This document shows, piece by piece, positions 9,947-63,909 of a stretch of DNA of 64,000 bases (position 1 is its first letter; every line of letters begins with the position of its first letter). The notes under the pieces were generated by a model that did no database searches, was not told the origin of the DNA, and worked only from the letters and a program-made list of their open reading frames with translations. The translations under genes were made by a program, and so were the position numbers. This DNA is from Henckelia pumila (Eukaryota > Streptophyta > Magnoliopsida > Lamiales > Gesneriaceae): assembly GCF_033568475.1 (NCBI RefSeq), contig NC_133122.1, positions 181,183,449 to 181,247,448 on the forward strand, in the 5' to 3' direction.

Positions 9947-10890
9947 TGATGCGATCATGGATGGTTCGCGTGTTGATCGAGTGGCTGAGGATTCGTTGGA
10001 AATGCCAAGAGGACCAGTTACGAGAGGCCGAGCTCAGAAATTCAAGAAAGAACTTCAATCCTTGATGTTGAAGTCATACGAGGGCGTTGGATTTCTTGAT
10101 ATTCAGTTTGGAGGATGTTCTAATCTTATTGAGGTCAAAGGAGGTCAAAAAAGTAAAAAAATTAAAGACCAAGCTCGAAGCTGCGGCGCGTCCGCGCCTT
10201 TTGATTGCGCGCCCGCGCGTCCGGATATCAAATTGACGAAGTTTTGCGAACTCTCGACGCGCCCGCACTGCCTTCTCGCGCACCGGCGCCGTGTCCTGCG
10301 CAACTGCGGCGCGCCCGCGCCAAGCCCTAGTGCCCGCCCCGACATATTTTACATACACCGAAGGTGTTTGTGTGTGTGCGAGATATTATCTTATTTTGAT
10401 ATTCTATGCTATTTTTAAGTCTTTTATTCCTACTAAAAAACTTTAGGAGATATCTTTGATATCTTTTTGATTTATTTTGCGTTATCTTTCAATATTTTGG
10501 GTTGTAATATAAATACTACAACATTCATTATTTTTAATAACAATTAAGATTTTCAGAATATTGATTATTCAATACAAAATTCTCTCTAAAATTTTATCAA
10601 AGCTTTTGTTTTACCCAAAATCAAACTTATCAAAGTTTCATAGTTTTGTGGCGTTTATCAGTCGATTTTCAATTGGGTTGTCAAAAACAGGTTCCTTTGA
10701 AGGTCTAATTGGATTATTGATTGTTTTCTATCGTGATTCCTTGTTGCTAGTTACGTGTTCATCTAGAGGTGGAGATCCAAATCTGTTACTTGTTTCAAAG
10801 TCGGGACACAAATCCTTGAATTCTTTTGTTATCGAATTGAGGTGCGATTCGTTGTAATCGTGTTGCCTTTCATACATAAGATTCATATCA
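9947..10890 (+). repeat. 5' LTR of the gypsy element
   Basis: 944 bp, TG...CA. It carries GC-rich blocks (GCGCGCCCGCGC type) at about 10180-10340 that are longer than in the 3' LTR (870 bp). It contains a copy of the 3' end of the pol frame (from about 9950), as expected because pol overlaps the 3' LTR. Confidence 0.93.
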
Positions 10891-10904
10891 GTTGGTATCA
10901 AAGC
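10891..10904 (+). other. Primer-binding site
   Basis: GTTGGTATCAAAGC follows the 5' LTR directly. It resembles the initiator-Met tRNA site (TGGTATCAGAGC) with one change (A for G). Confidence 0.75.
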
Positions 10905-11401
10905 AAACGTTTGAAACAAGTAAGTTTTCACATCTTTGTAACTATCTGTTCTTCGTGTTCTTTGCGTTCTTCGTCCTTCTTCTAATTCTTCGTCTAAGTC
11001 TATTTCTCGTTCGTGTCTTGTGCTGCAAGTTATCTCAAAAAAAAAGAGAAATTCGAAAATTTCGGTCAAAAAAAAAAAGTAAGGGCCGAAAGCTACAAAA
11101 AAAAAAAAAAAAAAAAGAAGCAAGATAACTTGTGGACAATTTTTGTTCTTCTTCATCCTTGGGTGCAAGTCAAAAATTCGAGCATCCATAAATTTCTTAC
11201 TCTTGTTTTTGTCAATCTTTGAGAGTCGATTTTCAAGCGTCTAAAAGTTGTGAACTTGAGAGTTTGATTCACTTTTACACAAAGCAAAAGCTTACATAAA
11301 TTTTGAGTGGAAAGAAAAAGAGTGTTTGAGTTATTCGTTTGGAGTGAACTGTGAGAACTTGTGTGAGAAATTTTATTATTAACCTTTTTCTTGCAGGTAC
11401 C

Positions 11402-14400
11402 ATGAATCCTAATAAAGATACTAGTGAAAGTATGAACCAAGGAATTTTCAAGGTTCAAATGGAGGCGTTGATGGGGCAATTTACTAGGGTGATGAGGTCG
11501 GAGTTGGAACCTCTTCATGAGCGGATGAGTAGATTGGAGGAGAGTAGTAGTAGTGGAAAAAAAATAAAGATAGGAAGGGGAATGATTTTGAAAGAGATGA
11601 GGAGAGTTTTGATGAGAATTGGGATGGGAAAAGAAGAGTACATGGGGGTAGACATAAGCGAGAAGCGGTACGGGGAAAATATACGGAGGGCAGTAAGAAG
11701 GATGAAAATATTAGTAGTATTAAGATGAAAATTCCAGCGTTTCATGGGAAATCTGATCCGGAGGCGTATTTGGAATGGGAGAAGCATGTGGAGTTTGTGT
11801 TTGATTGTCATCACTATTCTGATCTTAAGAAAGTGAGGTTGGCAATGGTTGAGTTTGTAGACTATGCGTTAATCTGGTGGGATCAATTAGTGACCACTAG
11901 AAGGAGGTGTGGGGAGCCGCCTATTGAGACGTGGGAGGAGATGAAGCGTGTCATGAAAAAGCGGTTTGTGCCTAACTATTATTATCGTGATATGTACAAA
12001 CGTTTACAAACTCTGAAGCAAGGTCCAAGAAGCATGGAGGATTACTACAAGGAGTTGGAAACCACGATGATCCGGACCAATATTGAGGAGGATAATAAAG
12101 CTACAATGGCCAGATTTTTGTGCGGTTTGAATAGAGAAATCCAAGATCAAGTGGAGCTTCGCCACTGTTTTGATTTGGATGAGATGGTGCAGACGGCCAT
12201 GAAGGTGGAGCAGCAGCTCAAGAGGAGAGGAGCTGGTCGACTTTCTACAGGTGGAGGATCGTCGACTTCTTGGCATCCAAACGTTGCAAAACGGGAGGAC
12301 AACAAGCTGGTGTCCAAGCCAAAATTTGACACCAAATTGGAGGCACCAAAACAAGTGGGTAAAGGTACACCTGAAACTACTAATACTCGTTCTAGAGATA
12401 TTAAATGCTTTAGATGTCAAGGTGTTGGTCATATTGCCAGTCAGTGCCCTAATAAAAAAATTATGATTATGAATGCTGGTGGTGAGATTAAGTCGGAGAG
12501 TGAGGAGGAGAATTATGATGGTATGTCTGCTTTGGAGGATCCCAATGAAGAGGGATATGATGCGGTGGTTGGAGAATTGTTAGTGACTAGGAGAGTGTTG
12601 AATGTACAACAAAAGGAGGAGGAAGAAACTCAAAGGGAAAATTTATTTCATACTAGATGCTTTGTGAATAACAAAGTATGTAGTGTTATTATTGATAGTG
12701 GGAGTTGCACTAATGTAGCGAGTTATAAGCTGGTGGAAAAGTTGAGTTTTCCTGTTATAAAGCATCCTCAACCTTATAAATTGCAGTGGTTTAATGATAG
12801 CTTGGAGGTGAGAGTGCATAAGCAGGTGGTGGTACCTTTTTCCATTGGTAAGTATGTAGATGAAGTTTTGTGTGATGTGGTGCCTATGCAAGCTTGTCAT
12901 ATTTTGTTGGGTAGACCGTGGAAATTTGATAGAAAGGTGATACATGACGGTTTTAAAAATCGTTATTCTTTTACCTTGAAAAAAAAGCCTATTGTATTGT
13001 TACCTATGACTCCAAAGCAAGTGTTGGAGGACCATTTGAAAAAGAAAAAGAAAGAAGAGGCCGAAAAAAAGAGTGAACAAAAAAGTGAGATGGCCTTAGA
13101 AAAAAAGATTGAGAGAAAAAAAGATGGAAAAACAATTGAGAGGAAAGAGGCCGATAAAAAAATATGTATGGCCCAAAAGAGTGAGTTGCGAGAGATTTTA
13201 CATGTGCATACTCCACTTGTGTTGATTTTCTATAAGGAGATTCTCTTTAACACAAGTGATATAGCCGGAAATCTTCCGAGTAATGTTGTTTCTCTTTTAC
13301 AGGAATTTGAAGATTTATTTCCGGAGGATTTTCCTCAAGGATTACCACCTTTGAGGGATTTTGAGCATCAAATTGATCTTGTGCCCAGAAGTGCATTGCC
13401 AAATCGTCCAGCTTATAGGAGTAATCCGGAGGAAACAAAAGAGCTACAAAGGCAGGTAAGTGAACTTCTCGATAAGGGATTTGTGCGTGAATCTATGTCT
13501 CCTTGTGCAGTGCCTGTTTTGTTGGTTCCTAAGAAAGACGGTTCATGGAGAATGTGTGTGGATTGTAGAGCCATTAATAACATTACCATCAAGTATAGGC
13601 ATCCTATTCCTAGACTAGATGATATGTTGGATGAGTTGCATGGTTCTAGCGTCTTTAGTAAAATTGATTTAAAAAGTGGTTACCATCAAATTAGGATGAG
13701 AGAAGGTGATGAGTGGAAAACTGCTTTTAAAACCAAATATGGCTTGTATGAGTGGTTGGTTATGCCCTTTGGATTAACTAATGAACCTAGCACTTTTATG
13801 AGATTGATGAATCATGTATTGCATGTTTATATTGGAAAATTTGTTGTGGTATATTTTGATATCTTGATATATAGCAAAAATTTGGATGAGCATGTCGAAC
13901 ACTTGAGAATTGTGCTAATCACACTAAAAGCTGAACATTTGTATGCCAACTTGAAAAAGTGTGTGTTTTGTACAAAATAACTTGTGTTTCTTGGCTTTGT
14001 TGTGAGTTTCCAAGGTGTCAGAGTTGATGAGGACAAGGTAAGTGCAATTCGAGATTGGCCAACGCCTACTTCTATTGGTCAAGTTCGAAGTTTTCATGGT
14101 CTTGCAAGTTTTTATAGGAGATTTGTGAAAGACTTCAGCACTTTGGCGGCTCCTATGGCTGCGGTGATCAAGAAGAACATTCCATTCCATTGGGGCGAGG
14201 AGCAAGAGAAGTCTTTTGATATTATTAAACAAAAATTAATTAATGCTCATTTAATTGTTTTACCTGATTTTTCTAATACCTTTGAAATTGAATGTGATGT
14301 GTCAGGTGTAGGGATTGGAGGTGTTTTGATGCAAGGTGGACGGCCAGTTGCATACTTCAGTGAAAAGCTAAGTGGAGCAGCGTTGAATTATCCTACCTAT

Positions 14401-16215
14401 GATAAGGAATTTTATGCCTTGGTTCGTGTGCTTGAGACGTGGCAGCACTATTTGAGGCCAAAAGAATTTGTGATTCATACGGATCATGAGTTTTTGAAGC
14501 ATCTCAAAGGACAACAAAAGCTGAACAAGAGACATGCCAAGTGGGTGGCGTTTGTAGAGACTTTTCCCTACATTATCAAGTACAAGCAAGGGAAGGAAAA
14601 CGTGGTAGCGGATGCTCTATCACGATGGTACGTATGTGCTTTTATTTATTTTAGATTCTAAATTCTTAGGGTTTGAGTATGTGAAGGAGTTATATACTAG
14701 TGACCTCGATTTTGGTAAGATATATGCGTCATGTTTGCATGGTCCAAAAGATAAATTCTTCATGCATGATGGGTATTTGTTTAAGGAGGATAAGTTGTGT
14801 GTTCCTAAGTCGTCTATTCGTTACTTGTTAAGGAATCACATGGGGGTGGTTTAATGGGACATTTTGGTGTGGCTAAAACTTATGAAACTTTGCATGAAGA
14901 TTTTTATTGGCCACATATGAAGCATGATGTTAAGAAAATTTGCGAAAGATGTGTGACTTGTAGGAAAGAAAAGTCTAGACAACAACCACATGGTTTGTAT
15001 ACTCCACTTTCTGTTCCTAGTGAACCGTGGGTAGATATCTCTATGGACTTTGTTTTAGGACTACCGAGATCTAAGAAGGGGAGGGATTCAATTTTTGTTG
15101 TGGTTGATAGATTTTCTAAGATGGCTCATTTTATTGTGTGTCATAAATTTGATGATACATCTCATGTTGCGGACTTATTCTTTAATGAAATTGTTAGATT
15201 GTATGGCATGCCTAGGAGTATTGTGTCTGATAGAGATACTCGTTTCTTGAGCTACTTTTGGAAAACATTGTGGTGCAAACTTGGTACTAAATTACTGTTT
15301 TCGATTACATGTCATCCTCAAACGGATGGTCAAACTGAGGTTGTCAATAGGACATTAGGAACTTTGTTGCGTACTATCATTAAGAAGAATTTGAAAAGTT
15401 GGGAAGAATGTTTGCTATTTGTTGAGTTTGCATATAATCGTAGTGTGCATTCTACTACAAATTTTTCACCATTTGAAATTGTGTATGGTTTTAATCCTTT
15501 AACCCAATTGGATTTAATGTCTTTGCCTATGAGTGAAAGGGTTAACATGGATGGTAAGAAAAAGGCGGAATTTGTGAGAAATTTGCATGAAATGGTGAAG
15601 GTGAACATTGAGAAAAAAAATTTGCAATATACAAAGCAAGCAAATAAGGGAAAGAAGGGAGTTGTGTTTGAAGCGGGTGATTGGGTGTGGTTGCATTTGA
15701 GGAAAGAGCGGTTTCCTGAAAAACGGCGCTCAAAGCTTTTACCTAGAGGTGATGGACCGTTTCAAGTGTTGGAGCGCATCAACGACAACGCCTACAAATT
15801 AGATTTGTCAGGTGAGTATAATGTCAGTGCTACTTTTAATGTTTCTGATTTATCTCCTTTTGATGTAGGTGATGATCAAGACTTGAGAACAAATCCTTTT
15901 CAAGAAGGAGAGGATGATGCGATCATGGATGGTTCGCGTATTGATCGAGTGGCTAAGGATTCGTTGGAAATTCCAAGAGGAGCAGTTACGAGAGGCCGAG
16001 CTCAGAAGTTCAAGGAAGCACTTCAATCCTTGATGTTGAAGTCATACGAGGGCGTTGGATTTCTTGATATTCAGTTTGGAGGATGTTCTAATCTTATTGA
16101 GGTCAAAGGAGGTCAAGAAAGTGAAGAAATTGAAGACCAACCTCGAAGCTGCGGCGCGCCCGCGCCTTTGATTAGCGAACCAACGGCGCGCCCACGCGTC
16201 CGGATATCAAATTGA
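11402..16215 (+). pseudogene. gag-pol of the gypsy element, four frame breaks
   Basis: The gene starts at ATG 11402. Gag includes IPAFHGKSDPEAYLEWEKHV and the CCHC knuckle CFRCQGVGHIASQC (12406-12447). The protease site IIDSGSCTNV is near 12690. RT runs at about 13400-13980, RNase H at about 14280-14620 ([16 protein letters not shown]). Integrase (from 14854) shows the HHCC zinc finger (GHFG...MKHD...CERCVTC) and the DDE residues ([21 protein letters not shown]). Breaks: a frame change in the A8 run 11557-11564; a TAA at 13978-13980; frame changes near 14632-14645 and 14830-14845. The RT core reads YFDILIYS where the family has Y-x-D-D, so one catalytic Asp codon is missing (13852-13866). The leader 10905-11401 contains an A18 run at about 11098-11116. 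Confidence 0.92.
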
Positions 16216-16784
16216 CGAAGTTTTGCGAACTCTCAGCGCGCCCGCCCCGACATATTTTACACACACCGAATGTGTTTGTGTGTGTGCGAGATATTATGCT
16301 TATTTTGATATTATATTCTATTTTTAAGTTTTTTATTCCTACTAGGAAACTTTAGTAGATATCTTTGATATCTTTTTGATTTATTTTGCGTTATCTTTCA
16401 ATATTTTGGGTTGTAATATAAATACTACAACATTCATTATTTTTAATAACAATTAAGATTTTCAGAATATTGATTATTCAATACAAAATTTTCTCTAGAA
16501 TTTTATCAAAGCTTTTGCTTTACCCAAAATCAAACTTATCAAAGTTTTTGTCAGTCGATTTTCAATTGGGTTGTCAAAGACAGGTTCCTTTGAAGGTCTA
16601 ATTGGATTATTGATTGTTTTCTATTGTGATTCTCTGTTGCTAGTTACGGGTTTCAACTAGAGGTGGAGATCCAAATCTGTTACTTGTTTCAAAGTCGGAA
16701 CACAAATCCTTGAATTCTTTTGTTATCGAATTGAGGTGTGATTTGTTGTAATCGTGTTGCCTTTCATACATAAGATTCATATCA
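15915..16784 (+). repeat. 3' LTR of the gypsy element
   Basis: 870 bp, TG...CA, preceded by a purine-rich tract. It differs from the 5' LTR by scattered substitutions and by a shorter GC-rich block (about 16150-16245). The pol stop codon is inside it at 16213-16215. Confidence 0.93.
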
Positions 16785-52557: not shown

Positions 52558-53037
52558 GTGCCACTTTGTCTATGTAATATATCTATTTATTATTTTTTAT
52601 AATTATATTAGTGGAATTTTCACGACTTCATGATAAAAGTCATAATTTTGAATTATTAATTATGAAAATCAACTGAAATAATACAATAATCATTAATAAA
52701 TTTTCAAATGTACGTCTCATTATTGATATTTGAAAATAAAATGATTCAAACTAAAATTAATGATAAATAAACAACTTAATTATGAAATTACTAAACTATT
52801 ATAGTAAAAAATTACTAAACTATTAAGCTTCATTTTAGTTATTTATTATTTTAACTATTTAATTAAATTTTTTAAATATCATTTTTATTATAAATTATTA
52901 AAATATAAACAAAAATACAATTTTCAACAAAAAAATAATATAAAAATAACGGAAAAAATACAATTTTGATGTTTTTATTTGTATTTATGTTTCATTTTTT
53001 GTTCTATTAATGATGAATATGTATTTTCAGTCTTATA

Positions 53038-53318
53038 ACTCAACTTTTATATATACTAGCGATAATAGCACACACGATGTGTGTGCATAAAAAACCGCTA
53101 CTCGTGAAAAAAATGGAGAATGAAATTTTTTTTTGAGAAGATAAAAATAAAGTTTATCAATTTAAGAAAATGAAATAGGTAACTGCATAAAACTTATAAG
53201 CAAAGTGATGATCGGTTAAAAAAATCGAAAGTGGAATGCTAAGGGTATTTTTGGAATAAAAAAAAAGTTTCACCAAAAACAGTTATTAAAAGGGTATCTC
53301 CCTTTATTTATAGTATAG

Positions 53319-53359
<41 letters not shown>

Positions 53360-54674
53360 TAGATAGTCTAGATAGTGTGAATTATTATATATATATATAT
53401 ATATATGAGTTTGATGATTAATATAAAAAGATTTCAATCAATAAATTTGAATCTTAGTCGGATGATTAATATAAAAATATTTAAATTAATAAATTGGAAG
53501 GCTTAGTAGATTATTTCGATTATATTATTTCGGTTTTTTTTTGGAAAATTTTTTTTGTACAAACTTCAAATTTTATTCCTTTAAATGTTTTTATGTTAAT
53601 ATAAGTATATTAGTAAATAAGTGTAAAAAATATTATTAAGTATGTATATGCCTATATATTTGGGAGAAGAAAAGAAAAAAAAAATGACCTATATAATTGG
53701 GATGTAGTGTATTATCTAATTAATAATAAATCTGCTTATTTCAGCGACCATATAATAAAATATCTTTAATTGCTTAACTTATTGGGATCCATTCGAATCT
53801 TATATAACATGTTCATAGAATAATTAGAATAGTATTATTTTTATTGATATTTTATTGATAGACCGTAATACAGGTCGACTTAGTCTATTATACTGTGAAA
53901 ATTAATAATTTTCAATATATATTACAAAATATATTTTCTATGTTAGAAGTAATAATTTTGACTCAAACCAATATATGTTATACAATATTTTTTCGTAATG
54001 ACAAAAAAAAAGCTATTTTTGAAGTGAAAAATAATATTTTATAAATAAAATAGTAATTTTTTTTAAAAGAAATAAATAAAATAGTACTTTTGGATTGAAG
54101 TTCATCTCACAAATTTGACCTGTCGTACAATCTCACATGAGTTTTTGTTTTTTTGTTTGTTTGAGTTGGGGTAGTACTTTTGGATTGAAGTCATCTATAG
54201 GGTAGTACTATTTGGATTGCAGGTCATCTCACAAATTTGACCTTTGACCTGTCATACAATTTCACGCGAGTATCTCGAACACGAGATCTCGTCCAAAATC
54301 TTGGTGTCAGATTAGCTAGAAGTTATCGGCAGTTTTTGCGTTTTTTTAGTTGGGTGAGGAAATTGCCATAATCGGGTCTCGAATTCGAGATCTCGTCCAA
54401 TACTAGGGACATTGGTACCAGATGAGCTACATGTCATCAGGACATTTTTAATTACTAGTAAAACACACGTGTGATGTACGTGGTGCCACTTTGTCTATGC
54501 AATATATCTATTTATTATTTTTTATAATTATATTAGTGGAATTTTCACGACTTCATGATAAAAGTCATAATTTTGAATTATTAATTATGAAAATCAACTG
54601 AAATAATACAATAATCATTAACAAGTTTTCAAATGTACGTCTCATTATTGATATTTGAAAATATAATGATTCAA
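53038..54674. repeat. Segmental tandem duplication, copy 2, left part
   Basis: It matches copy 1 up to ATGATTCAA, then is interrupted by the 7.9-kb element. The match resumes at 62593-62883. It differs from copy 1 by the intact Helitron head and by TAA/TA microsatellites at about 53320-53406. Confidence 0.9.
53056..53319 (-). mobile_element. Complete non-autonomous Helitron, 264 bp
   Basis: On the minus strand it starts TCTATACTATAAATAAAGG (53319) after an A and ends in the hairpin GCACACACATCGTGTGTGC, an 8-nt gap and CTAG (53059-53056) before a T. The A|TC...CTAG|T layout is diagnostic of Helitrons. It has no coding capacity. Confidence 0.85.
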
Positions 54675-54759
54675 GGGTAAATGATTTAAAAATCCCTACC
54701 AATCCTTCAAACTTTATCTTAACTCCTTAACCATAATTTTCTTTATTTCAACTCCCTAG
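54675..54759. repeat. Left terminal inverted repeat
   Basis: Starts GGGTAAATGATTTAAAAATC and ends at AACTCCCTAG. It pairs with 62499-62583. The identity of about 72% implies an old element, TIRs that differed from the start, or both. Confidence 0.8.
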
Positions 54760-55080
54760 TGGTTCCCATTTTTGATTTAAATATTAATTAGTAACTAATC
54801 CTTTGTACGTGGTATTGTTAACCTATCGAACCAGTCTCGGCCATGCAAGACTATCAGTTCCGCAAGGTTTCCAGCCGATATACTCCGAATTAGGGTCCAA
54901 CATGCTTCCGTAAGATGAATTAAATTTAAATACCTCTTTGACCAAAATGTCGTCGGGTCATACCTGCCGAGTTTTACGAAGTGCTCCTCACACTCCAACC
55001 ACGCAGTCGCAACAGATGGTTTCTGCACAAGCTCCTTCAACGACACCCAGCACAGTCTTAAATCGTTTTCTACCTTAATG
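54760..55080 (-). other. Unassigned segment between the left TIR and the viral leader; possible captured exon
   Basis: A minus-strand frame (about 55080-54795) encodes about 90 residues including LRLCWVSLKELVQKPSVAT and WLECEEHFVKLGRYDPTTF. It opens after an AG acceptor-like site, and a GT donor-like site follows WSKR near 54940. I do not recognise the protein. The composition is more gene-like than the surroundings. It could be a host exon captured by the MULE, or viral leader sequence. No function is proposed. Confidence 0.3.
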
Positions 55081-55279
55081 CATATGGTATATAAATTTAA
55101 TTATAAAATATGAGCATGAAAGAACAAGAGACTTTAAAGAAATTATTTAGAAATAATATTATTACATAAATCAACTCCTTTGAAGAGGAGAAGACAACTT
55201 GTTAACTACTCATAGTAGCTTTGTTCTTGAAATACATGAAAGAAAACTTAATACAATAGAAAGAGAAATATTACAACAA

Positions 55280-55345
55280 TTTATTTGTAAGAAACCTGAA
55301 GGGAATGATCGATATCTTCAGCTTTCTTGGACACTTGTATTTATA
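55280..55345 (-). promoter_or_regulatory. Pararetroviral promoter and poly(A) signal
   Basis: On the minus strand TATAAATA (55345-55338) is followed about 50 bp later by AATAAA (55285-55280). A TATA box closely followed by a poly(A) signal is the terminal-redundancy (R region) layout of caulimovirids. It lies downstream of the last viral frame, as expected for a circular genome cut near its leader. Confidence 0.6.
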
Positions 55346-55594
55346 GCTGAGGTTCCACTCGTTTCACCGAAAAATTTCAGGGAATCTTACAGCTGTCTTG
55401 TATTTCTTTATTCCATTATTGATGACATCTTTTACTAGTGGAGGAATCACATGCCTGCCACTTTCTTTTGACTTTATTCTCCTCACATGTCTGCTTTATT
55501 GTTGTCGGAGCATCTTTTGCTTTTGAAGTAGGCCCCTGTGAAAACGCATCTTCAGTGGTCCTTGTCCACCTTTGCTTGTCTCGAAAAAATCTTT

Positions 55595-56857
55595 TCAATC
55601 CGTTCGGGGTCTAAAGGTTTTTTCAAATTCTGACTCCTTCTGATTTGGGCATTCTGGGCAGATATTCTCTGACCATCGTCCAATATGAGCCATGTTACAA
55701 AATTTTCGGCGAGTTTCTTTACTCCCCGGCAGCTTGTTGTTCCACAAAAGATTTCTCTTCTTTTCAAAGAGTTCTTCCGCAAAGGCTGTAGTTTTTCCTG
55801 TCATTGTGTTTAACAGGAATGATCCATTCATAGAATTCTGATAAAATTTAAATGGAAACTTGACTTTGTCCATCTCAGTAAGACAGACCCAAATACCCCA
55901 TGCCCTTCTGGTTGAGATCTCATTTTCCCCGAAAGTGGACACTAAGGGTATTTCTTCAGTATTTCTTCTTGTACTATTTATATCAGGTCTCCTTAGCTTG
56001 ATGAAATGAAAGGGTTCGTGTGATCCTTTCACTGTTGGTTCTGGAGCTGCACTGAAAAAATATAACTCAAGCACATCTCCTCTGGACAAATGGTCGTTAT
56101 TTGCCCATGTTTCTTGGACTGCTTCCTGAATCCATTTCGGTAACTGTGATATCTCCGGGAAGCTTGGTGACGTTGTATAAACTGAGGCCAAGACTCCAAA
56201 TTCATACCAGAGCTTTACATCCTTAGGATTGACATTATTTTTTAGCCAAACCCTTGGATATATCCCTTCCACATCAACCCTACAAGTGTTAGGGTTAATT
56301 TAACTTCTTGTACTTAATTTCTCCCACCTTTGTTGATAAACCTGAAATGAAGAAATAATAGTTGGGTTAGTATCGATCTTAGATTTGCCCTTGTCAGTGT
56401 TGGGCCTAAGATTGATCGCTTCCTCTTTTAACCCAGAGGCGGATGGTTGACTTGATGAGGAATCCTCATCAATTGTTGCTTCATCTAAATCATCAAAAGT
56501 TGATGATAGATTAGCACTTGTTTCTTGAGTTTTAGTTTCATCAACATCTTGTTTTCCAACCGGTGGTTGTATTTCTTGTTTTTGTAAAACCAATGGTTTT
56601 ATCATATCTTGTTTATGAGAAACCAATGATTTCTCAATAGCCTTCACAATTAGCCCTTAAATAGCAGCACATAGTTGTGTTTGGGCTTGCATACATCCTA
56701 TAATTCGATTAGATACTTTGATCCGATCAGCTTATTGTAACCTATCGGCAATTTCAGCATTAATGGCTAACTGGTTGAACTCGGTTTGAAGCAACCCAAG
56801 GTGTTCCCTGAGATGCCTCTGCATTTTCATGATGGAATCCACGTCACTGCCTTCCAT
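55595..56857 (-). pseudogene. Downstream ORF of the pararetrovirus (transactivator position), broken
   Basis: It starts at ATG 56857-56855, overlapping the last codons of the RNase H frame in another frame, a tight overlap typical of these viruses. About 421 codons run to 55595 with in-frame stops near 56754, near 56684 and at 56302-56300. The N-terminal part is polar with a Ser/Asp/Glu-rich stretch; the C-terminal part holds GIYPRVWLKNNVNPKDVKLW, LPKWIQEAVQETW and a basic end. By position it would be the transactivator/viroplasmin or the accessory ORF2 of related endogenous viruses. I cannot confirm this from motifs. The frame also appears shifted near the 3' end. Confidence 0.6.
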
Positions 56858-59047
56858 CTCTTGTTAAGAAATCTGCAAGAATATTTTCATGAGATTTAAT
56901 AATAACAATATCAAAAATATAATTTTGACATAATGCTTGCCATCTTAATAACCTAGCTTTCTCAGGTTGAGATTCAATTTTATTTCTTAGGAAAGCTTTT
57001 ACCTGGGTGTTATCAACCTTCAGAGTGAATTTTTTAGCAAGTAAAAATAATGGCCATTTTTCAAAAGCCCTTTTAACTGCATAAAACTCCTTTTCGTTGA
57101 TATGCCATCTGATGGCTTCTGATTCTGAAAAAAGACCGCTACAATATCTGCATGGTATTTCCCCATCTGGAGTGATCTTGGTAAGGACTGCTGCCCACCA
57201 ATCATCACTGGCATCCGTAAATAATACCAGATCATCTTCATCTATGGGTATAACCATTTTTGGGAGATTCTTACATATCTCTTTTAATTGGTTTACCCCT
57301 TTAGTGTGGTTATCGGTCCATATAAACCTAGCATCCTTTTTTAACAAAGGACTGAATACCTTTCTGTACATTGCTAGGTTGTTAATGAACATCCTTACAA
57401 AATTAACTACTCCAAGAAAACTCTGGAGTTGTTTTACGTCTTTGAGTTTATCTGAAAAATTCTTTACCTTTTTCACAATATGGGGTTGCAGAATTATTCC
57501 AATTTCATCAATCTCAATACCAAGGAATTCAATTTTCCTTGTTGCTATGACTGCTTTCTTTTCAGATAAGACCAGTCCTTCTTGTTTACAAATTTTTGAG
57601 AAAATCTCTAAGTGTTTAACGTGTTCGTCTATGTTTTTTGATGCTATCAGAATATCATCAATATAAAAGAACATAAAGTTGAAATAATCTTTAAAAAGGT
57701 TATCCATCTTTCTTTGAAATATCTGGGGTGCATTAGCCAATCCCATAGGCATAACTTCCCAAATATAGTGTCCATGTGGAGTAGAGAAGGCTGTGAATTT
57801 CTTACTGCCTTCTTCCATTCGAATCTGGTAAAAACCAGACTTACAATAAAATTTTGAAAACACTCTAGCATTTCGTACACAGATAATTAGGTGTTCTCTA
57901 CTCGGTATGAAGTACCCATCAAACTTCAGGATTTTATTAATACCTTGGTAGTTAATAACTAGCCTGGGTTTTCCTCTTTTTATTTCACCATGATTTCTAA
58001 CCAAAAAACCTTGCTGTTATATGGTGAAACTCCTTATTTGATTAAAACAAGGTCCAAATGTTCCTTGATAATCATTCTCATATCCCTTTGATCTGTTATG
58101 TTCATCGGGATAGGCTTATATCTGACGAATTTATACTCTTTGCCTTTCTTTAGAGTAAGACTGGTTTTGAGTTGATTTCTATCCCACCATGCCGAAGGAT
58201 GCTCGTTGTAACTTTCTTTGAGCCTCTTTTTGACATCTTCAAGGGATACCTTATTTTCTAACTCTATATCTCTGTGATTTAGAGTTACCTTGAGAAGCTC
58301 CATATCCTCTGTTTGGAGTTCTTGTTCTGTTGTTATTTTTAACATGGTTTCTCCAAACCTTCTTGGATCTTTCATTTTTGGGTGAAAAAGTTGTCCTTTA
58401 TCACCACGCTGACTGCGAAATATTATCGGCAATTGTCGATAAAAATCAACCTTGAGTCTTTGAACGATAATTTTATGATCACAAATTGTAGTGAACATAA
58501 GTCTTCTTGACTCATTGTCTTGTGTGTACTTCTTAAACATTTGTAAGAAGTTATTTCCTAACAAGATATCAGCTCCTGTATCATGGAAATAGATTGGTGG
58601 TGTTTTTACCTTGTACCAAGGTGTTTGACCTGCACCTCCCATAAGGATCTCTGCTTGTTTTATTCCTTTGCAAAGAATTAAAATTCTTCAAGAGAAATCT
58701 CGTCCAGAAATTTTTGGCAATTCTTCTTCACATTCTGCAGGGAAGACTCCTCTTTTTGCTGTACAAATTCCTTCTCCCGAGTCAATATAAGCTGCAAAGT
58801 ACTCAGCCTTATATTGTTCATACAACATCCCTAACGGAATGTATATGGAGAAAAGACTTGTTGTCATTTTTTTAAAGGGATTACTAAATGGCCCCGCCAT
58901 TTTTAACAGACTGTGTTGTAACACAGTAATTCGATTAAGACTATTTACCTTTAGTTTTCCTAAGGCTTCAAAAGGTAGAGTATGGTTACTCCTTTCTACT
59001 TCTTCAATGCATTCTAGTAAATCATGTTCATGACTTACTAATTTCAA
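56844..59047 (-). pseudogene. Caulimovirid aspartic protease - reverse transcriptase - RNase H frame, broken
   Basis: The protease site YIDSGEG lies at about 58784-58804. The continuation DTGADILLGNNFL (about 58575) fits a retropepsin-like domain. RT has RGKPRLVINY, motif B-like GLANAPQIFQRKM and the catalytic FYIDDILIAS (about 57655-57685). RNase H has LFTDASDDWWAAVLT, WHINEKEFYAVK and the C-terminal ILADFLTRDGR. Breaks: TGA at 58690-58688, TAA at 58036-58034, a frame change in the T-run near 58005-58010. Motif A reads FSKFYCKSGF, where other caulimovirids have Asp in place of Tyr, so one catalytic residue is lost. Family-level assignment is firm. The genus is less so: the CP-MP-AP-RT order recalls Cavemovirus/Solendovirus. 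Confidence 0.88.
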
Positions 59048-59146
59048 CAGTTGCTTCTTCCTCTATTTGTGAACAGAGTTTTCGAATCTGATTAAGGGAT
59101 TGTCCCTTATCCAATTCTCTTGGTTTTCCATTTCGTAGATTTCTTA

Positions 59147-60442
59147 TTAAATCCTCCAAGTCTTTTCTTTTGCCATGAACTCTATTCCTTTTTCAAGGCG
59201 TTTACATGGTTTATGGTCCTCCAGGAATTCTAGACCAAGAATGAGCTGATCCATTTCTTTTCCTGGAATTCCCCAGATTTGAACTTCCAATTCTCTAATA
59301 TTTATCACTCTTTGGTAAGTTCCTTTTTCCTCTTGTTCCAAATAGTAAATCGAGTTACAAGGGAACTGGTTCCGAAGACTTGTAATTTCGAATACTATTT
59401 TCACTTCTTTCCATCCTTCTGGAGATTTAAGTTTTCCTATTATAGAAAACTCTTTTTCTTCTGGTGGAATTTCTTGACTAGGAGATTTGTCCCATCTTCT
59501 GCTTGTCATTCTGTCTCCTTGGAAAGATAACCTTTGGGGTTCTATTTTAAGGTCTTTGTATAGAACCGGTCTGTCTTGAATTTGAATGTCTGTTTCTTGA
59601 ATTAAAGAAAACTCGATTCTTTCCGGGTATATTGCTTGAGCAACTTTCCCAAAGACCTCTGGAATTTCAATGAACTCATTTCTAATAAATAATTCAGAAT
59701 GGTGAGTATTAGAAAGAGCATATGAAATTTGATACGTAATAGAATATGGCCTATTACTTTCATTCATTAATCTTTTTTTCTTGAAGTTTTGATGCAACGT
59801 CAATGCTCGACTAAAATCTCTATCAGCTAAATTGTAGGCTATTCTTGGATAAATAACTCCCACAATTTTTTCTGCACACAAATTTTCCGAGATAGTTCCT
59901 AGAACCGCATCTTGTATATTCCCCATTCTTTTATCGCATACTACGATATCTATGAGTGAATCTATTTTCTCTTTAAAAGTAGCTTTGATCATAATTTGGA
60001 TTGCTCCAATATGAATCCAAGACATTGTCTTTGCTACTTCTGCTTTTAATTTCTGTAATTCCTCTCGAATTTCTTCAAAGAGAATTAATTGCATCTCAAT
60101 TTGATTACTGGTTAATTCCATAGGAATCGCCATTTCCCTTCTGGATACCTTATAAATCAAATTATGTCTTCTTTGTCTTAGTCCTAGGTTTCCTAAGACT
60201 CTTTCAACTTGTCCTGCCGAAAATCTTTGGTATTTCTGTAATGTTGGATTTTCTCTCATAATCCGTTGGACCATATTATGAGATATCGTGGTTTGACTAA
60301 AGAACCCAGCCAAACTTTCATGTGTTTCATGCCGAAACACTTTCTCTTTACTCTGATTCTGATTTTGATTCATCCTCAGAAACTTCTCGACTAAACAATA
60401 TCTCTTCTTCGTATATGCTTTCATCTGAGGGGATATCCTCAA
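59147..60442 (-). pseudogene. Movement protein domain of the pararetrovirus (30K superfamily)
   Basis: Movement proteins carry virus between cells through plasmodesmata. The frame of about 430 codons is open, but its start at 60442 is only the edge of a frame change; the preceding coat frame has an acidic stretch just before. The core shows SWIHIGAIQIMIKATFKEKI, VVCDKRMGNIQDAVLGTI, YPRIAYNLADRDFSRALTLH and FIEIPEVFGKVAQAIYP, the pattern of caulimovirid movement proteins. It is placed downstream of the coat domain, as in cavemo- and solendoviruses and unlike badnaviruses, where it comes first. Confidence 0.8.
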
Positions 60443-60515
60443 ATTGATATACTTGGACTAGATCTTAAAAGAAGACCGCATCATCCATATCTGGTGTTGC
60501 TTCAAAGAGTTTAAC

Positions 60516-62252
60516 TCATTTTTTCTCGTTTTCTGGACAATTTGTAGATATATGTCCTCTTGCTCCACATGTCCAGCAGTTGCAATCCTTGAAACTTTCA
60601 CTTGCTCTTGTATGAGTTCTTCTTAAAGTTCTTCTTGATGGTGTTCTTCCCCTGCTTTGTGAAGAGCCTGTTTCTAGGAATGTTCTTGTAGGTCCACTTC
60701 TTCTACCCGATCTATAGGATCTGGCCTTTTGTTTGGACCAAAATGTTCTTGGTTTCCAAGAACTTTTCATTCTTTTATTATAGGGATTATTTCTGAATTT
60801 CTTTCTTTTAATTTCCTGTGATCTGTTTTCAATAATCGTTGGAAGATCATTTTCTCTACAACACAAAGGTGTACGCTTATCTATACCCCTTATTTTCTTG
60901 CAGTTCTTCTGTAATGCTGTCATATGACACCATTCTGCTAATTTTCCTTTCAAAAAGGAGGCACGTCTTGCCAATGTATCAAGATTACCTGGAACATATT
61001 CTTTAATCAGCATTTCTCTCCAGGGACTTGGCATTTTTGCGAAAAATAGCTGAATAGCTATATTTTCCTGGACTCCCGAATTTCATCTGTATTTAGTGAA
61101 TAACATAATGTATTCATCCACTAAACAGATATCATGTAACTCGAGGCTATAAAGAGCTTGAGTATATCTTCTCTTTTTCTTTGTATCTTGATTATTGAAA
61201 TAGTCTACCCCTATGAATTGTGCTTTAAATAGGGTGGCCATTCTTCCTCCAATCTCGTTGAGGGATTCTCCTGCTAAGATTGATTCCTTATTTTCTGGCA
61301 TAGTCATCTCCCATGCGATCTTAACAGATCCCATTAGACTCATTTCTAGAAGTTTAATGAATCTTTTTTTATTGAGATCTAATGTCCCTGCTGCTATTCT
61401 CATAGCTGACGTCCAATCATCTATAAGATCTTCTCTGTTTTTGAAGTCCAAAACATCAAGGTTTAACATAACCCCGTAAGGAGGTATTGGATCTAAAACA
61501 GTTTTTCCGTAAGGAGTTTGATGGAGTGGGATTTTACTCCTTCTTGATCTGGTTCCTGCTGGATGTGAATTTTCTCCAACCTGGAACTCACTATGCGGTT
61601 CTTCTGTTTTAACCACATATCTTGGGGGATTCCCTATGGGTTGTTCACCTTCAGGTGAATTCATTTTTAGATCTACTACTTTGAGATTCGCACAAGAATT
61701 CGCAAGATCTTGTAGATCCTCGAGATTTAATCTTTCTAAAGTAGTCATCAGATAGTGTTTTTCTCTGATACTGCTTTTATAAGATTAATCATCATTTCAT
61801 CATCGGTTAAAGGTTTTTGAACTATTTTGGTTTTACCTTTCTGATGTAACAAAGGTTCGGTACCAAATGAGAGTGGTAACCTTCCACCTGTATTTCATTT
61901 TCTAGAACCCGAAGTGTGTTCTAGATTTATGATTTTATTTTGAAGATCCTTTAGAGTTCCAAGAATTTCTTCTTGTTTCTTAAGGATTTCTTCAATTTGC
62001 CGAGGTATTTCATATAGCTGATTGTTGTAATATTGTACCGTCTTTTGAATTTCTCTAAGATCTCCGGAGAGTTTAGAAGAATCTGGGGTAATCTCTAAAA
62101 ATTGAGAGTTAAAAATAATTTTTCTTTATCTCTTTAAAATTAAGAGCATTAATCACAACATATTGTAAGTAATCTATTGCGAATATATTAACTTGTTTAT
62201 AGGATTTCATATGAATAAAATCCTCTTGATTCAAACCTTCGTTTGAAGTCAT
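60516..62252 (-). pseudogene. Coat protein domain of the pararetrovirus, broken
   Basis: It starts at ATG 62252-62250, about 80 nt after the primer site. The first part is coiled-coil-like (LREIQKTVQYYNNQL, EEILKKQEEILGTLKDLQNK, in a different frame from the ATG, so a frame change lies near 62110). The middle is a capsid-type region (KRFIKLLEMSLMGSVKIAWE, SLELHDICLVDEYIMLFTKY). The end is basic, followed by the CCHC knuckle CWTCGARGHISTNC (about 60545-60590). An in-frame TGA at 61085-61083 and the TGA at 60518-60516 interrupt it; acidic sequence continues in frame beyond the latter towards the movement domain, implying one original CP-MP frame. Confidence 0.8.
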
Positions 62253-62329
62253 ATTTTGTAAAAATCTTCTCCTCAACAAAGAAAAGCATGAATTAACGAA
62301 TAATATTACGTCTGAATAATTAACCTAAA

Positions 62330-62341
62330 GCTCTGATACCA
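62330..62341 (-). other. Viral primer-binding site (initiator-Met tRNA)
   Basis: TGGTATCAGAGC on the minus strand, the exact 12-nt complement of the 3' end of plant initiator-Met tRNA used by caulimovirids to start minus-strand DNA. It marks position 1 of the viral genome. From here to the poly(A) signal at 55280 is about 7.06 kb, near the size of a full genome. Confidence 0.9.
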
Positions 62342-62498
62342 TTTTGCAGATAATTCTTTATACTGCAAATGAACACAAAATCTTCAGATTCAATCATAAA
62401 ACCTTTAAATTTTAAGCATAGAACCTATAGATTTCAAGCATAGATTAACATAAATCTAGTACAAGAATTAAACATTAAAATATTCAAGTTTGGTGGTC

Positions 62499-62583
62499 CT
62501 AGGAAGTTATAGTAAAGAATCTTTTGGCTAGAGAGTTATAATAAAGTTAGAAAGGGTATTAGGGATTTTAGGACAATTTACTC
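62499..62583. repeat. Right terminal inverted repeat
   Basis: Its outer end is GGACAATTTACTC (reverse strand GAGTAAATTGTCC). It pairs with 54675-54759 and is directly followed by the duplicated target ATGATTGAA. Confidence 0.8.
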
Positions 62584-62592
62584 ATGATTGAA

Positions 62593-62883
62593 ACTAAAAT
62601 TAATGATAAAGAAACAACTTAATCATGAAATTACTAAACTATTATAGTAAAAAATTACTAAACTATTAAGCTTCATTTTAGTTATTTATTATTTTAATTA
62701 TTTAATTAAAATTTTTAAATATCATTTTTATTATAAATTATTAAAATATAAATAAAAATACATTTTTCAACAAAAAAATAATATAAAAATAACGGAAAAA
62801 TACAATTTTGATGTTTTTATTTGTATTTATGTTTCATTTTTTGTTCTATTAATGATGAATTTGTATTTTCAGTCTTATAACTC
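62593..62883. repeat. Segmental tandem duplication, copy 2, right part
   Basis: It continues the match to copy 1 from ACTAAAATTAATGATAAA to CAGTCTTATAACTC (copy 1: 52750-53037). Confidence 0.9.
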
Positions 62884-63240
62884 ATATTTTTTTATTTTTG
62901 GTCATGTTACGGTATATTTTCATTTGTAGTCATGTAGCTTCTATATTATTTTTATTTTTTGTCATTTAACTTGTATGTTATTTTTATTTTTTGATTATTT
63001 TTTCACCATAGTCTATCATGTCTACCGATCATAAAAAAAGATCGAAAATTAAAATAAATACAAATTAAAAGATCAAAAATAAAAACAATATACAAGTCAC
63101 ACGACTACAAATAAAAATACATCGTAAAATTACCAAAAATGAAAAATATTCAATTTGCAGGACTGAAAATATAAATTCACCGTTAACAGGACCAAAAGTA
63201 AAAAAAATTGCAATAAAGAGGACGAGAAATATAGTTCCCT
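62793..63240. repeat. Diverged foldback element
   Basis: The left arm (62793-63000) and right arm (63041-63240) are inverted, with matching blocks such as TATTTTCAGTC and TTTTTATTTGTAGTC. The outer right end reads AGGGAACTATATTTC on the reverse strand. It is probably a Mutator-like foldback MITE. Its left arm is shared with the end of the duplicated segment. Confidence 0.6.
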
Positions 63241-63720
63241 AAAATAACCAAATAAAATAATAAATCCAATTATTTAATTCAAAATAAACTCTAATAATAT
63301 TATCAAATGATGTTTATATAATTTTTCAATTTTCCTCATAAATTACCATAATAAATAAAAGAAATAAACTCTTCTCATTGCAAATATTTGAAATGTAACA
63401 TTTACACAATAATAATTAAATAAATTCGAATCACCAAATAGCAAGTTTACATACTATATGTCTCATTGTCAATATTTGAAATTTATTATTTCAAACAAAA
63501 ATTCATGATACATAAATAAAATAGTCATCGAATTACTAAGCTATTAATTAGCTTCTTCTTAGTTAATTATTATTTCAACTCTTTTATCACAGTTTCTTTG
63601 CTAATTATTAAAATATAAATAAGAGTACATTTTCCAACAAAAAGAATAAAAAATAATAATAATAATAATAATAACCAAATAAAATTATAAATTCAACTAA
63701 TCATTTTAAAATAACATTCT
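63241..63720. other. AT-rich intergenic
   Basis: Contains a (TAA)n microsatellite at about 63655-63673. No gene was recognised. Confidence 0.5.
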
Positions 63721-63909
63721 ATCCTAATATCATAAATTTTTTTGATAATTCGTTCAATAGTTATCATAATCATCATAAGAAATGTTTGTACCATGATTAA
63801 TTTTTTTTGTATTGTCTTGGAATCATGCATAATCTCAAATCTATTAAAGTACAACAATTTTAATACACACTATTTTATAATTTAAGACAATTATTATTCA
63901 TATAAATGA
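63721..63909. repeat. Inverted copy of 50244-50425
   Basis: Reverse complement of this stretch matches 50244-50425 at roughly 80%, with shared blocks such as TTGTCTTGGAATCATGCATAA and TGATAATTCGTTCAATAGTT. The pair brackets a 13.3-kb region. Confidence 0.8.

What the first reader, a model, noticed from the sequence alone, without database searches (positions are those of the whole stretch)
54675..62583. An endogenous pararetrovirus enclosed in a Mutator-like DNA transposon
A near genome-length caulimovirid (primer site to poly(A) signal, about 7.06 kb) lies between 85-bp gapless inverted repeats (61/85 matches) and a 9-bp target duplication (8/9). Caulimovirids have no integrase and normally leave no target duplication, so these ends belong to a cut-and-paste element. 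Either a MULE captured a viral genome or the virus integrated into a MULE. Both would give a route by which viral DNA could be copied or moved by transposase. I do not recall such a composite being described.
Basis: partly seen in the sequence, partly recalled or inferred. Interest (0 to 1): 0.95.

Follow-up and report, generated by a model that had tools for sequence, protein, structure and literature searches.

The report
Plant virus carried by jumping-gene ends
In this plant genome a plant virus genome sits between the ends of a cut-and-paste transposon, and the pair has spread together to many places, each well-mapped copy bearing the small target duplication of a transposon, which gives this virus lineage a way to multiply in chromosomes.

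Summary
The inverted repeats (61 of 85) and 9-bp duplication (8 of 9) are confirmed. A near-identical empty copy of the target lies in the window: the joined flanks match it without gaps at 217 of 223. In the window's own assembly (885 Mb) both ends are sharp borders of a repeat family whose copies run on into the viral body. Of 15 copies with both ends located, the window's included, 13 have perfect 9-bp duplications and 2 have 8 of 9; of 210 mismatched pairings none is perfect. End words of two subfamilies occur 158 and 124 times, reversed controls 0. So virus and terminal repeats moved as one DNA transposon. No short virus-free version was seen among 74 paired ends. Viral reading frames evolved under purifying selection while subfamilies diverged, so the virus was not simply dead cargo. 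Mutator-like ends are the best assignment by repeat length and 9-bp duplication. The transposase was not identified, and whether the repeats came from a MULE or from the viral leader is open.

The parts
52635..52857 (+). near-identical copy of the target region without the element (empty site, single ATGATTCAA)
   Evidence: joined flanks match gaplessly, 217 of 223
54666..54674 (.). left target-site duplication ATGATTCAA
   Evidence: 8 of 9 to the right copy
54675..54826 (+). left terminal inverted repeat (first 85 bp gapless; weaker to about 150 bp)
   Evidence: family border within a few tens of bases in the 39 non-window matches scored
54795..55100 (-). 101-aa open frame in the leader region, origin unknown
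   Evidence: no Pfam, no homologue found; partly readable in subfamily B with stops
55280..55285 (-). AATAAA, poly(A) signal-like
   Evidence: AATAAA in the matching stretch of 5 of 5 family loci checked
55338..55345 (-). TATAAATA, putative pregenomic promoter box
   Evidence: present in 5 of 5 loci checked
55595..56656 (-). downstream viral reading frame (two pieces, 55595-56299 and 56300-56656), unknown protein; homologues of the first piece in Perilla, Sesamum, Phlomoides
   Evidence: over 55595-56250 pooled pN/pS 0.18 in the true frame against 1.33 and 1.58 in the other two; weak sub-cut-off hit of the second piece to a P-element transposase model, E 0.023
56844..58016 (-). reverse transcriptase and RNase H
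   Evidence: Pfam RVT_1 2.1e-32, RT_RNaseH 8.7e-18
58034..58687 (-). Caulimovirus-type A3 protease piece
   Evidence: PF02160 1.6e-06
59147..60457 (-). viral movement protein
   Evidence: PF01107 1.6e-26
60516..61082 (-). probable coat protein piece with zinc knuckle
   Evidence: PF22909 E 0.0015 and PF00098 E 0.0011, both below Pfam cut-offs
61083..61784 (-). 5'-proximal viral reading frame, function unknown
   Evidence: pooled pN/pS 0.42 against 0.90 and 0.91 in other frames, 26 of 28 copies offered
62330..62341 (-). TGGTATCAGAGC, tRNA-Met primer-binding site
   Evidence: exact in 11, one mismatch in 12 and two mismatches in 3 of 26 right-end loci, the window's included
62440..62583 (-). right terminal inverted repeat (outer 85 bp gapless)
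   Evidence: family border within a few tens of bases in the 39 non-window matches scored
62584..62592 (.). right target-site duplication ATGATTGAA
63383..63578 (+). second, older paralogue of the target region without the element
   Evidence: 147 of 189 aligned bases match across the junction; score 145 against a maximum of 82 in 300 shuffles

Best explanation
This is one copy of a dispersed family of composite DNA transposons of about 7.95 kb. Each unit is a caulimovirid genome, opened in its non-coding leader between promoter and primer site, with Mutator-type terminal inverted repeats as its two ends. Shown: the unit inserted many times as a whole, and each of the 15 copies with both ends read has a 9-bp target duplication (two of them with one mismatch). 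Inferred: since no transposase model passed its cut-off in the viral frames, a MULE transposase supplied in trans cuts at the repeats. Shown: three viral reading frames carry the mark of purifying selection (RT between subfamilies, two others within subfamily A). Inferred: the lineage also passed through a phase in which the viral proteins worked, for example an episomal or infectious circle carrying the repeats, so that reverse transcription and transposase-made insertion alternated.
For: Borders at 54675 and 62583, within a few tens of bases, in the 39 non-window matches scored for each end. Loci run on into the element's interior at 87-96% identity: 7 of 7 non-window left-end loci L002-L008 for 0.57 to about 1.7 kb and 19 of 19 right-end loci L010-L028 for 0.3 to 1.6 kb. 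9-bp duplications: 13 perfect and 2 at 8 of 9 among 15 copies with both ends; 0 of 210 mismatched pairings perfect, 16 at 8 of 9. Empty site in the window, 217 of 223 gapless across the junction. Terminal words: 158 (A left), 124 (B left) and 135 (B right) places, reversed controls 0. Full-length spacing in 44 of 74 B pairs. Between-subfamily dN/dS in 201 RT codons is 0.06-0.24 (9 sequences). Frame-specific conservation in two further frames. TATA box and AATAAA in 5 of 5 loci; primer site exact or one off in 23 of 26.
Against: No transposase carrying these ends was found: 10 MULE-transposase loci scanned within about 1.5 kb gave best scores of 31-35 against 29-46 in ten control stretches. Of 49 mapped ends 30 form the 15 pairs and 19 stayed unpaired; indels, nested insertions or the limited stretches fetched may explain it. 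26 of 100 listed B left ends found no partner within 25 kb, and 30 of the 74 pairs are outside 7,850-8,050 bp. 60 of 105 RT hits were not linked to a listed end; the lists are cut at about 100 places. dN/dS within subfamily A is 0.23-0.90, which fits decay after insertion but shows that the selection signal is not uniform; the pairwise values are not independent. No circular or RNA form was seen; none could be looked for.
Confidence: 0.8

Rival explanations
1. Passive cargo: one dead virus copy sat in a non-autonomous MULE, which was then multiplied by transposase alone with no role for viral genes.
For: Terminal repeats and 9-bp duplications fully explain movement; copies with internal stops occur; within subfamily A RT dN/dS reaches 0.90.
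Against: Between-subfamily dN/dS 0.06-0.24 and frame-specific conservation in two other frames are not expected of neutral cargo.
Confidence: 0.12
2. The terminal repeats are the arms of the virus's own pregenomic leader stem-loop, opened at its tip and recognised by a host transposase; no MULE was ever captured.
For: The repeats lie where the leader stem-loop lies in genera whose primer site is downstream of it (PMC5902531, passages). An AT-rich stretch of about 100 nt separates the right repeat from the primer site. The two arms change together between subfamilies: 9 concerted columns against 1 crossed control, of 121. No virus-free elements with these ends were seen in the capped lists.
Against: About 490 nt of leader with several upstream ATGs lies between the TATA/poly(A) region and the left repeat, not the simple stem-loop layout. 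The inner leader is not unusually structured, z 0.49, and complementarity does not run on inside the repeats in subfamily B. Repeats homogenised by transposition would also change together.
Confidence: 0.25
3. Chance nesting of a virus and an unrelated MITE.
For: None found after the genome search.
Against: Viral body attached at 26 of 26 end loci examined and matching duplications at 15 of 15 copies; hundreds of end words.
Confidence: 0.01
4. Copies arose by repeated ordinary viral integration (end joining) or by segmental duplication.
For: One run of B left ends with about 8.55 kb spacing on C1 looks like local duplication.
Against: The same terminal borders plus a 9-bp duplication at each of 15 sites, and a clean empty site.
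Confidence: 0.02

Closest known systems
Teratorn (piggyBac transposon fused with a herpesvirus, medaka; PMC5601938 abstract and outline seen, PMC10175614 passages seen)
   Same: A virus genome bounded by cut-and-paste transposon ends and amplified in the host genome; viral genes kept.
   Different: Reverse-transcribing plant virus instead of a herpesvirus; 8 kb instead of 180 kb; Mutator-type ends and 9-bp duplications instead of piggyBac; no transposase found inside. [quoted passage not shown]
Endogenous caulimovirids (EPRVs)
   Same: Movement protein, A3 protease, RT-RNase H, tRNA-Met primer site, high copy number. The RT falls in a fully supported clade with Sesamum proteins (72-73% identical where coverage is 99%) and an unnamed ENA protein (79%).
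   Different: EPRVs are described as lacking LTRs, with boundaries hard to define (PMC10741241 passages). Integration is ascribed mainly to illegitimate recombination, with a transposon-mediated process and, for later amplification, retroelement-like transposition among the proposals (PMC9794742 passages). Here the borders are exact, with target duplications.
Non-autonomous MULEs and Pack-MULEs
   Same: Terminal repeats over 100 bp, 9-bp duplication, foreign cargo, no transposase inside.
   Different: The cargo is a near-complete virus genome whose frames show purifying selection, not host gene pieces.

Membership tests
Mutator-like element (MULE) | 9-bp target-site duplication (length recalled) | tested here: met
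   13 of 15 perfect, 2 of 15 at 8 of 9
Mutator-like element (MULE) | long terminal inverted repeats | tested here: met
   subfamily A 61 of 85 gapless, score 92 vs shuffle maximum 58; one subfamily-B copy aligned over about 130 bp, score 95 vs maximum 50
Mutator-like element (MULE) | encodes or shares ends with a MULE transposase | tested here: inconclusive
   no transposase model over its cut-off in the 9 element frames scanned (one weak P-element hit, E 0.023); 10 of 150 scored MULE-transposase loci scanned within about 1.5 kb, none with these ends
Caulimoviridae | RT-RNase H with A3 protease and movement protein, no integrase | tested here: met
   Pfam hits, no integrase model among the 9 frames scanned
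Caulimoviridae | tRNA-Met primer-binding site | tested here: met
Caulimoviridae | coat protein with zinc knuckle | tested here: inconclusive
   PF22909 and PF00098 below cut-off
Cavemovirus-like genus placement (coat before movement protein, recalled) | genus-level RT relationship | tested here: inconclusive
   the only named exogenous virus in the 120 hits listed of 426 is Sweet potato collusive virus, 43% identity, on a long unsure branch
Teratorn-like virus-transposon fusion | viral genome and transposon ends mobilised as one unit | tested here: met
Teratorn-like virus-transposon fusion | demonstrated transposition activity | not testable with these tools
   needs an assay

The most novel reading that the evidence does not exclude
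A plant pararetrovirus lineage that carries transposon ends as a fixed part of its genome, so that its episomal circle replicates by reverse transcription and is placed into chromosomes by host MULE transposase: a reverse-transcribing virus with a borrowed DNA-transposon integration system.
Probability: 0.4. Interest if true: 0.96.

Novelty: new variant of a known kind. Interest (0 to 1): 0.9.

Why it matters
Most caulimovirids have no integrase (PMC10741241 passages), and how they enter and multiply in plant chromosomes is called unknown (PMC10175614 passages) or ascribed mainly to illegitimate recombination (PMC9794742 passages). Here one lineage has a directly testable route: transposon ends. 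It would be a second virus-transposon fusion of this kind, in another kingdom, with a reverse-transcribing virus and a different transposon superfamily, and it joins class I-like replication with class II movement in one element. In the searches made for it I saw no listed title or abstract start describing such a composite; CAULIFINDER's authors report no TE-caulimovirid chimeras in a test run (PMC9719215 passages).

Tried and rejected
Rejected: chance nesting, MITE-only ends, segmental duplication as the general cause. Led nowhere: relatives in IMG/VR (one stretch matched a pattern, none confirmed); Rfam and tRNA scans of the window (none); a Pfam or homologue label for the 101-aa leader frame; the downstream frame's fold (model pLDDT 47.5, too poor to search); Pfam scan of its homologue alignment (two weak stray families, each in 1 of 13 members); a total copy count by a leader word (not completed). 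The C-subfamily right end was not in the stretch fetched; by eye it holds a second copy of that insertion's flank instead. Rows dropped: one of the A-left places shown was not carried over (99 used), and places beyond about 100 per list were not visible; two of 28 copies offered for the 5'-proximal frame were left out because they covered 60% or less of the codons or matched too little, and stop codons were skipped.
Full report
What was checked. All numbers hold: 61 of 85 gapless matches, next best in the window 43 of 85, duplication 8 of 9. The gapped alignment of the two ends scores 92 against a maximum of 58 in 500 shuffles; the extension beyond 85 bp is only weakly supported by itself, 11 of 1000. 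The viral assignment holds: movement protein, A3 protease, RT and RNase H by Pfam, primer site, probable coat protein below cut-off. The window's copy is broken into several frames.

Empty site. The window holds the same target region without the element at 52635-52857. The two flanks, joined in a script with one duplication removed, match it without gaps at 217 of 223 across the junction, with a single ATGATTCAA. A second, older paralogue lies at 63383-63578 (147 of 189 aligned bases; score 145 against a maximum of 82 in 300 shuffles). So the whole segment 54675-62583 is an insertion.

A family, not a single nest. The window is G000:C3:181183449-181247448 of an 885-Mb assembly in 133 contigs. 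Queries covering only each terminal repeat and its flank found 691 and 744 first-look candidates, 40 scored each, the window's own among them; the other 39 stop at or within a few tens of bases of the two borders. 7 of 7 non-window left-end loci and 19 of 19 right-end loci run on into the element's interior, for 0.3 to about 1.7 kb. These loci were chosen by likeness to the window's ends, so they favour its own subfamily.

Target duplications. From 49 mapped ends (20 left, 29 right), 15 copies, the window's included, had both ends; 19 ends stayed unpaired. Of the 15, 13 have identical 9-bp duplications and 2, the window's included, have 8 of 9. Of 210 deliberately mismatched pairings none is perfect and 16 reach 8 of 9. 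Lengths run from 6,886 to 9,868 bp, 12 of 15 being 7.9-8.0 kb. This is the signature of transposition of the whole composite.

Subfamilies. RT protein hits elsewhere (105 scored besides the window's, 92-95% identical) lie on the four large contigs and on small ones. The expected left end was fetched for the first ten of them: nine show the same kind of border; the tenth stretch was still viral sequence, and a listed left end lies 4,017 bp from that hit. Eight of the nine belong to a subfamily B, mutually 96-99% identical and 80-83% identical to the window's end, and one to a third group C. Left words of A and B occur 158 and 124 times and the B right word 135 times, reversed controls 0. Of 105 non-window RT hits 45 link to a listed left end, 42 of them at 2,141-2,325 bp; 60 do not, and the end lists are truncated. 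Of 100 listed B left ends 74 pair with an opposite right end within 25 kb; 44 are 7,850-8,050 bp apart and the shortest is 3,272 bp, so no MITE-like form was seen there. One B copy's duplication could be read on both sides, but it is a low-complexity AT repeat and weak evidence.

Selection. In 201 RT codons of nine copies dN/dS is 0.06-0.24 between subfamilies, 0.08-0.37 within B and 0.23-0.90 within A. For the 5'-proximal frame (26 of 28 copies offered, subfamily A) pooled pN/pS is 0.42 in the true frame and 0.90 and 0.91 in the other two; for part of the downstream frame (55595-56250, 6 copies) 0.18 against 1.58 and 1.33. The pairs are not independent and no tree-based test was run. TATAAATA and AATAAA are present in 5 of 5 loci, and the primer site is exact or one off in 23 of 26. 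Viral functions thus appear to have been maintained while the composite diversified. Copies with and without stops both occur.

How it probably works. Read on the viral strand, the element starts with the right repeat, then about 100 nt, the primer site, the coding frames, the promoter/poly(A) region, about 490 nt of leader, and the left repeat. Inference: a circle closed at the two repeats would place them inside the pregenomic leader, between promoter and primer site. Transposase acting on the repeats would insert such a DNA with a 9-bp duplication. In several caulimovirid genera the primer site lies downstream of a large leader stem-loop (PMC5902531, passages), so the repeats could themselves be that stem. 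The arms do change together between A and B (9 concerted columns against 1 crossed, of 121) while keeping 11 arm-specific differences in common, which suggests that the fusion predates the A/B split (one copy of each subfamily). The inner leader alone is not unusually structured, and in B the complementarity does not run on inside the repeats.

What is missing. The transposase is not identified: the genome holds many MULE transposase matches (1188 candidates, 150 scored), but ten loci scanned showed no matching ends within about 1.5 kb, and several of those ten look alike in the scan. The donor of the repeats is unknown. The plant is unnamed; the nearest viral relatives with a name are in Sesamum, Perilla and Phlomoides, which suggests Lamiales (order recalled).

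Relation to known things. Teratorn is the nearest in kind. Among the papers listed (none listed) and 105 I saw no such composite with a pararetrovirus by title or abstract start; only PMC10741241, PMC9719215, PMC10175614, PMC5902531 and PMC9794742 were seen in passages, and PMC5601938 and PMC5491270 in abstract and outline. The library lacks most subscription journals. I therefore rate it a new variant of virus-transposon fusion, the first I know of for a reverse-transcribing virus.

Noticed in passing
window 10000-16784: Ty3/gypsy LTR retrotransposon with gag, RT, RNase H and integrase between repeats 94-97% alike; primer-site-like TGGTATCAAAGC at 10893.
   Followed up: partly
G000:C1:97074001-97171382: Run of seven exact subfamily-B left ends in one orientation, four of the steps 8.52-8.59 kb: a likely tandem array. 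The 640 bp before one of them does not match the element's two end regions.
   Followed up: partly
window 54795-55100 (-): GC-rich 101-aa open frame in the leader region, partly readable in subfamily B, no homologue found; possibly a captured host piece.
   Followed up: partly
L118 (C3:136685430-136685830): By eye, the flank of a subfamily-C copy appears again about 8 kb away without the element: a possible further empty site.
   Followed up: no
window 52635-54674 and 62584-63750: The AT-rich target region is itself repeated: a 97% copy about 1.9 kb upstream of the insertion and more diverged direct and inverted repeats downstream.
   Followed up: partly
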